NCBI GenBank assembly: GCA_947178095.1 | Contig: CAMWWZ010000006.1 | Coordinates: forward strand, 1-55,104 | From: an uncultured Treponema sp. | GTDB lineage: Bacteria > Spirochaetota > Spirochaetia > Treponematales > Treponemataceae | DNA length: 55,104 nt | Reading direction: 5' to 3' | Shown: positions 45,665 through 45,806 of the stretch, one piece after another | Numbering within the stretch: position 1 is the first letter of the stretch | Layout: the number at the start of each line of letters is the position of its first letter | The notes under the pieces: generated by a model | Databases searched by the model: none | What the model was told of the DNA's origin: nothing | What the model saw: only the letters and a program-made list of their open reading frames with translations | Program-made: the position numbers and the translations under genes

Positions 45665-45806
45665 GGAACGTTCCTGCCGACAAGCGGAAACGTTTCAACT
45701 TCCAAGTGGAAACGCTCTTACTGTTCTGTAGGAACGTTTCCACTGCCACAGTGGGAACGTTCCCATTTTTAGTTGGATACGTTTTCATTTATGAGAGGAA
45801 CATTTT
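45665..45806. repeat. Seven-unit ~22-bp tandem array with palindromic GGAA(A)CGTTTCC cores
   Basis: Core CpG positions 45669, 45691, 45713, 45735, 45758, 45780, 45801 (last is CA) spaced 22,22,22,23,22,21. Confidence 0.93.

What the first reader, a model, noticed from the sequence alone, without database searches (positions are those of the whole stretch)
45665..45806. Seven-unit, ~22-bp-spaced array of palindromic GGAA(A)CGTTTCC cores in a non-coding gap
Read directly: GGAACGTTCC-TGCCGACAAGC / GGAAACGTTTC-AACTTCCAAGT / GGAAACGCTCT-TACTGTTCTGTA / GGAACGTTTCC-ACTGCCACAGT(G) / GGAACGTTCCC-ATTTTTAGTT / GGATACGTTTTC-ATTTATGAGA / GGAACATTTT. Core centres are 22,22,22,23,22,21 bp apart, about two helical turns, so all cores sit on one DNA face. 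Several cores are perfect palindromes (AGGAACGTTCCT, GAAACGTTTC, TGGGAACGTTCCCA), and some spacers are dyad-like (ACTTCCAAGT, ACTGCCACAGT). The period is not a multiple of 3 and the spacers diverge while the cores persist, which argues for selection on DNA binding rather than coding. It lies about 250 bp upstream of an HU-like gene, in a region that also has a PcfJ-like plasmid protein. It could be an iteron-like replication or partition element, a cooperative operator array, or a nucleoprotein scaffold.
Basis: partly seen in the sequence, partly recalled or inferred. Interest (0 to 1): 0.86.

Follow-up and report, generated by a model that had tools for sequence, protein, structure and literature searches.

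The report
HU-HIG gene with phased palindrome array
A row of evenly spaced mirror-symmetric DNA sites lies just upstream of a gene for an HU-type DNA-bending protein; many relatives of that gene in two bacterial phyla carry their own, differently worded row with the same 22-base spacing, which suggests that these little-understood proteins each recognise a private DNA address.

Summary
The array is real: six good GGAWACGTWTCC palindromes plus a weak seventh, 22-23 bp apart, in the intergenic gap 45665-45806. It is not a plasmid iteron. It forms the upstream part of a self-contained unit: array, promoter, leader, HU-HIG gene (PF18291, 44984-45418, minus strand), terminator. In 201 genomes of the genus, arrays of this wording occur in 7 and the close HU-HIG subfamily in 6, all among those 7 (Fisher p about 8e-11). 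Geometry is held (59 spacings: 43 of 22, 16 of 23) while spacers diverge. Some genomes carry further solitary copies in unrelated intergenic places. The architecture is general: 46 of 137 HU-HIG upstream regions from Spirochaetota and Bacteroidota have a tandem array of period 21-23, against 1 of 111 control genes. The wording differs between subfamilies but is usually dyad-symmetric. Most likely the array is the cognate, cooperative binding site of the HU-HIG protein, used for autoregulation, with solitary copies as extra targets. Binding is inferred, not shown. The nearest described object is the 23-nt BrickBuilt repeat of Porphyromonas gingivalis, published as a MITE; one of its 19 copies borders an HU-family gene. 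I found no paper in the held library linking HU-HIG proteins to such arrays.

The parts
45664..45675 (.). core 1, AGGAACGTTCCT (perfect palindrome), promoter-proximal end of array
45686..45697 (.). core 2, GGAAACGTTTCA
45708..45719 (.). core 3, GGAAACGCTCTT (degenerate right half)
45730..45741 (.). core 4, AGGAACGTTTCC
45753..45764 (.). core 5, GGGAACGTTCCC (perfect palindrome)
45775..45786 (.). core 6, GGATACGTTTTC; outer edge of the conserved unit (homology with G128 starts here)
45797..45806 (.). weak seventh unit GGAACATTTT, not conserved in G128; doubtful
45551..45579 (-). sigma-70-like promoter TTGCCT-N17-TATATT of the HU-HIG gene (predicted); similar hexamers lie 28-92 bp past the last core in related units
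   Evidence: consensus match only, not above the shuffle expectation for the region
45419..45550 (-). 5' leader of the HU-HIG transcript (inferred)
   Evidence: inference
44984..45418 (-). HU-HIG protein, 144 aa, PF18291
44642..44684 (-). terminator-like GC-rich stem followed by T-run, conserved in G128, G118 and G101
44634..45787 (-). whole conserved unit: array, promoter, leader, HU-HIG, 3' region, terminator

Best explanation
The array is the dedicated binding site of the HU-HIG protein encoded next to it. HU-HIG has the HU/IHF fold, whose members act as two-fold symmetric dimers that bend DNA (family knowledge). I propose that one dimer sits on each palindrome and that the spacing of two helical turns lets six or seven dimers assemble side by side on one face into a bent nucleoprotein segment. 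Because the array lies just upstream of the HU-HIG promoter, its occupancy would control the protein's own transcription (autoregulation). In genomes with solitary arrays the same protein would also occupy those intergenic sites, as a small regulon or as chromosome-organising anchor points. Different HU-HIG subfamilies would each recognise their own repeat wording while keeping the 21-22-bp frame. Shown here: the array, its conserved geometry, its linkage to and co-occurrence with HU-HIG, the dyad symmetry, and the generality in two phyla. Inferred: protein-DNA recognition, cooperativity, bending, autoregulation and the role of solitary arrays.
For: HU-HIG genes of the subfamily in G128, G118 (two copies), G052 and G040 each carry a GGAWACGTWTCC array 190-255 bp before the start codon. 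The strict three-core pattern finds arrays in G000, G128, G118, G040, G221 and G101, and G052 is seen with a looser pattern; the close HU-HIG subfamily is in G000, G128, G118, G052, G040 and G101. That is 6 of 7 against 0 of 194, Fisher p about 8e-11. Eleven arrays, 70 units: spacings 43 of 22 and 16 of 23 and no others, five arrays share 22,22,23,22,22, core 16.6 bits, spacer 3.8 bits. G000 and G128 share the unit from the array's outer edge to the terminator and nothing seen beyond; HU-HIG is its only recognised gene. Generality: 46 of 137 HU-HIG upstream regions have period 21-23 arrays with z>4.5, against 1 of 111 control upstream regions (p 7e-13) and 0 of 56 mostly intergenic ones. Consensus units are dyad-symmetric (221 matches against 184 +/- 4 in shuffles; 14 perfect six-pair dyads against 1.2 expected). 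Repeat wording follows protein relatedness (Mantel rho 0.24, null max 0.20). HU fold: HU/IHF/Hbb lead the Foldseek list, the profile matches HU and IHF chains, and the beta-arm TPxET motif with proline P90 is invariant in the subfamily.
Against: No binding data exist here. About two thirds of HU-HIG upstream regions show no array at this threshold. G221 has an array but no HU-HIG was found (88% complete). Solitary arrays lie in all intergenic configurations, including between convergent genes, which does not look like a simple regulon. HU/IHF proteins usually have low or indirect sequence specificity. Many compared genes are homologous, so counts are not independent, and co-inheritance on one unit alone could produce the co-occurrence. 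The Mantel signal rests on pairs above 50% identity and is what common descent alone would give. The structure model is only moderate (mean pLDDT 70.7, no Foldseek match below 1e-3).
Confidence: 0.6

Rival explanations
1. The array is the operator of another trans-acting regulator, for instance a LacI-family repressor, which happens to control HU-HIG genes; HU-HIG does not recognise it.
For: The core GGAAACGTTTCC with a central CG looks like LacI-family operators (own knowledge). Solitary arrays lie near other genes.
Against: The unit is found in different genomic contexts with HU-HIG as its only recognised gene. Different HU-HIG subfamilies keep the 22-bp frame but use unrelated wordings, which would need many different regulators all attached to HU-HIG genes. 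Six or seven tandem operators in strict phase would be unusual for LacI proteins.
Confidence: 0.15
2. The array is a selfish or mobile repeat, like the BrickBuilt MITE of P. gingivalis, that spreads as a discrete unit; HU-HIG is a passenger or helper.
For: Solitary arrays in one genome share no flanking homology. G118:C13 carries an array about 80% identical to the HU-linked one, with homology ending close to the outermost cores. G000-G128 homology breaks at the array edge. BrickBuilt has TIRs and empty sites (PMC4596501).
Against: No terminal inverted repeats or target duplications were seen at the edges. Unit number and spacing are held while spacers diverge, unlike recent copies. HU-linked arrays recur at the same place before the promoter in distant relatives. 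This rival can be true together with the main explanation.
Confidence: 0.13
3. The array is an iteron-like replication origin or a partition centromere of a plasmid or integrated element.
For: Two-turn phasing, 22-bp units and an adjacent DNA-binding gene resemble iterons and some centromeres (own knowledge).
Against: No replication initiator or ParA-like gene among the neighbours scanned. Several arrays per genome in relatives, beside genes that read as groEL, acetate kinase, rubrerythrin and era (names from the sequence, not from a family search).
Confidence: 0.04
4. The array is a structural DNA or RNA element (hairpins, minisatellite) without a cognate protein.
For: Adjacent cores can pair across spacers; a terminator-like hit spans cores 4-5.
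Against: Spacer arms diverge (3.8 bits in 10 positions against 16.6 in 12 core positions). Helical spacing is kept to 22-23 over every interval.
Confidence: 0.04

Closest known systems
BrickBuilt 23-nt tandem repeat / MITE of Porphyromonas gingivalis (Klein et al. 2015, PMC4596501)
   Same: Tandem 23-nt units in arrays scattered between genes; one of 19 copies (BrickBuilt_14) lies between a membrane-protein gene (-) and PGN_0872 (+), a DNA-binding protein of PF00216, that is, upstream of an HU-family gene.
   Different: BrickBuilt has leader and tail segments with terminal inverted repeats and was interpreted as a MITE; unit number varies from 1 to 22.8. The window-type arrays have six or seven units, no such ends were seen, and their wording was not compared. 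Whether PGN_0872 is an HU-HIG protein was not tested.
HU-HIG proteins (PF18291; HU domain fused to wHTH, Ig or Gly-rich motif)
   Same: The window protein is a member by profile (69.4 bits, cut-off 26.2).
   Different: I found no description, in the papers held, of dedicated phased arrays upstream of HU-HIG genes.
Autoregulatory operators and IHF-organised nucleoprotein assemblies
   Same: Sites in helical phase upstream of the gene of a DNA-bending or DNA-binding protein.
   Different: IHF and HU are not known to have a family of private, subfamily-specific iterated arrays next to their own genes (own knowledge).
Plasmid iterons and centromeres (RepE- or ParR-type)
   Same: About two-turn unit length, tandem repeats, adjacent DNA-binding gene (own knowledge).
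   Different: No Rep or Par gene recognised; multiple chromosomal copies in relatives.

Membership tests
HU-HIG (PF18291) | Profile match above the curated cut-off | tested here: met
   69.4 bits against 26.2, E 3.8e-19; the NCBIfam HU_rel model TIGR01201 matches below its cut-off (55.7 against 68.6)
HU-HIG (PF18291) | HU/IHF fold: two helices, three strands with a beta-arm, C-terminal helix | tested here: met
   Predicted order H31-35, H46-65, E68-72, E76-84, E98-107, H109-117; HU/IHF/Hbb lead the Foldseek list with probability near 1 but E only 3e-3; profile match to HU chains E 7e-7
HU-HIG (PF18291) | Dimer that bends DNA through a proline-tipped arm | tested here: inconclusive
   T89, P90, E92 and T93 in the predicted arm are invariant in six subfamily members; dimerisation and bending not testable
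BrickBuilt-type MITE | Tandem units of about 23 nt in several intergenic copies | tested here: met
   22-23-bp units; four arrays in G118, at least seven in G040, but only one in the window's own genome
BrickBuilt-type MITE | Terminal inverted repeats and target duplications | tested here: inconclusive
   None recognised by eye at the edges of 12 arrays; no empty site was obtained
Plasmid iteron or centromere | Adjacent replication initiator or partition gene | tested here: not met
   Eight nearby proteins scanned, none is Rep or Par
LacI-type operator | Bound by a LacI-family repressor | not testable with these tools
   Only resemblance of the core; no LacI survey was made

The most novel reading that the evidence does not exclude
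HU-HIG proteins form a large, diversifying family of self-addressed architectural proteins: each subfamily has its own palindromic word, written several times at 21-22-bp steps beside its own gene, and in some lineages scattered over the chromosome, so that paralogous HU-HIG systems within one cell mark separate sets of loci without cross-talk.
Probability: 0.4. Interest if true: 0.88.

Novelty: new variant of a known kind. Interest (0 to 1): 0.74.

Why it matters
HU-HIG genes are numerous in Bacteroidota (3-31 per genome in the 14 genomes searched) and occur in Spirochaetota, yet I found no functional description of them in the literature held. A predicted cognate site next to many of these genes makes their function directly testable by EMSA, footprinting, ChIP or a reporter. 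It also offers a possible new reading of BrickBuilt-like repeats in an oral pathogen as protein-binding arrays, and a natural series of related HU-fold proteins with different predicted specificities for studying how HU/IHF proteins acquire sequence recognition.

Tried and rejected
Rfam: no family on the array or leader loci. The groEL-side search for an empty site returned only the conserved groEL end in other genomes, so insertion or loss of a solitary array could not be dated. The first control set was discarded because its loci had been chosen with array patterns and was replaced by an unselected one. 33 viral contigs matched the three-core pattern but none had HU-HIG in the DNA held; treated as chance. 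RNA hairpin function was considered and put low because spacers do not stay complementary. Period-18 hits upstream of L008 and L010 look like protein-coding tails, and (AG)n or 8-mer microsatellites upstream of some Bacteroidales HU-HIG genes were not counted as arrays.

Full report
Observation. Within the 55-kb window no other 142-nt stretch has more than three such motifs, and period 22 is far above shuffles of the upstream region. Six cores are good; the seventh is weak and is absent from the closest relative's array. The array is intergenic, 247 bp upstream of the start codon of an ORF on the minus strand (44984-45418), which is HU-HIG, PF18291. A promoter-like site (TTGCCT-N17-TATATT, 45579-45551) lies between array and gene.

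Conservation. Members of the same HU-HIG subfamily were found in a few genomes of the same genus. Their upstream regions carry the same kind of array: G128 (87% protein identity), G118 (two copies, about 60%), G052 (57%) and G040 (66% over 85 residues at a contig end). Over 11 arrays and 70 units the spacing is 22 bp 43 times and 23 bp 16 times and nothing else; five arrays show exactly 22,22,23,22,22; the 12-bp core carries 16.6 bits and the 10-bp spacer 3.8 bits. The units were collected with a loose core filter and a 21-24-bp neighbour rule, so part of the core information is built in; the spacing counts and spacer drift are not. Between G000 and G128 there is near identity from the outer edge of the array through HU-HIG, and a separate block (84%) ends at the terminator; outside, the two loci are unrelated. 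The array therefore belongs to a compact unit of about 1.15 kb whose only recognised gene is HU-HIG.

Co-occurrence. In the 201 genomes of the genus the strict three-core pattern is found in six (G000, G128, G118, G040, G221, G101), and G052 is added by a looser pattern. The close HU-HIG subfamily is found in G000, G128, G118, G052, G040 and G101; in G101 only the 3' half is on the contig, next to unrelated sequence. Six of the seven array genomes have the gene, none of the other 194 does (Fisher p about 8e-11). G221 is 88% complete, so its missing gene is uninformative.

Solitary arrays. G040 has at least five further full arrays, G118 two more and G221 one, in unrelated intergenic places, including between convergent genes. 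Arrays within a genome share no flanks, apart from the duplicated HU-HIG units of G118. One G118 solitary array is about 80% identical to that genome's HU-linked array, with homology ending close to the outermost cores, so arrays can apparently be copied as discrete pieces. Orthologous positions are kept in the pair G118:C41/G101:C27, and G040:C76/G221:C161 share array and one flank.

Generality. I collected HU-HIG genes by protein or family search in the genus, in other members of the order, and in 14 Bacteroidales genomes plus plasmid and phage records and scanned 450 bp upstream for tandem periodicity of any period from 14 to 40. Of 73 spirochaete regions 22, and of 64 Bacteroidales regions 24, have a significant array of period 21-23; of 111 control genes in loci not chosen by array patterns 1 does, and of the 56 controls whose upstream DNA is mostly intergenic none does (p 7e-13 and 1e-8). 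Three of the 24 Bacteroidales arrays (L118, L172, L178) came from a pattern search and should be discounted, and the 14 Bacteroidales genomes were reached through pattern hits elsewhere in them; the result does not depend on the three. The wordings differ widely: CTCASTGAG in a large Treponema group, AGAGATGCGCATCTCT, TCACCATGGTGA, TGTTGGCAACA, CCACAATTGTGG, TCACTAGTGTGA and others. The consensus units are dyad-symmetric far beyond shuffles (221 against 184 +/- 4; 14 perfect six-pair dyads against 1.2 expected). Similarity of wording follows protein similarity, mainly above 50% identity, which common descent alone would also give. The CTCASTGAG class repeats the picture of the window array: 8 of 22 loci have HU-HIG directly downstream of the array and most others show none in view; a few of the 22 are other tandem repeats.

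Mechanism. HU-HIG is an HU/IHF-fold protein, and HU/IHF proteins act as two-fold symmetric dimers that bend DNA (family knowledge). Palindromic sites at two-turn steps fit a row of such dimers on one face. The position upstream of the promoter suggests autoregulation. These steps are inferred: no binding was measured. The main alternatives are an operator for another regulator, and a BrickBuilt-like mobile repeat; the second may be true in addition.

Relation to known work. BrickBuilt in P. gingivalis (PMC4596501) is a set of 19 intergenic arrays of a 23-nt repeat, interpreted as a MITE; BrickBuilt_14 lies next to PGN_0872, a DNA-binding protein of PF00216. I could not examine that genome, so the link is a lead. 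Literature searches for HU-HIG and PF18291 gave nothing relevant, but the library holds open-licence papers only. The clade name HU-HIG goes back, from memory, to a 2017 comparative-genomic paper by Burroughs and colleagues that is not held.

Limits. Genomes are mostly fragmentary; HU-HIG loci are related to each other, so significance values overstate independence; two thirds of HU-HIG genes have no array at the threshold used; what the solitary arrays do is unknown.

Noticed in passing
own genome G000, loci L026 (C12), L029 (C3), L030 (C55): Three further HU-HIG genes of the same genome have their own 22-bp arrays of different wording (CAGTGAG, CCTATAGG, AAAAGATACARTGTTTT).
   Followed up: partly
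G118:C41 and G101:C27: A GGAWACGTWTCC array and a TCASTGA array, both without HU-HIG in view, lie 4 kb apart at orthologous places in two genomes, the second next to an era-like gene.
   Followed up: partly
L180:7040-7200 (Tannerella forsythia OH1426): Long 21-bp array CTTAAGGAAACGTTCCTTCAC without HU-HIG in view; the upstream regions of six HU-HIG genes of that genome do not show the same word.
   Followed up: partly
loci, e.g. L151 (Planctomycetaceae), L125 and L139 (Aquisalibacillus), L141 (Polaribacter): Tandem arrays of 21-23 bp with ACGT-containing cores occur in genomes where no HU-HIG was seen nearby; unexplained.
   Followed up: no
window 45419-45550 and the same region in L006 and L007: The HU-HIG leaders contain hairpin-like stretches (GACCGGGTTGCG...GTCCGGCG in G052 and G040), not matched by Rfam.
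   Followed up: partly
L286 (G101:C33:5383-5568): An HU-HIG gene with only its 3' half, joined to what reads like a transposase frame; the matching array is on another contig (C47:133).
   Followed up: partly
window 42032-44538: MBOAT O-acyltransferase followed by a DUF1574-like (weak) partner gene, plausibly a polysaccharide acetylation pair.
   Followed up: no
window 45885-48454: Two adjacent genes on the minus strand; the first has a weak (below cut-off) match to LpoB, the second no family match.
   Followed up: no
window 35426-35569: A 78-bp repeat, 1.8 copies at 74% matches, possibly within a repeat protein gene.
   Followed up: no
Bacteroidales HU-HIG loci, e.g. L375, L395, L411: (AG)n microsatellites 280-450 bp upstream of several Tannerella and Prevotellaceae HU-HIG genes; possible phase-variation tracts.
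   Followed up: no
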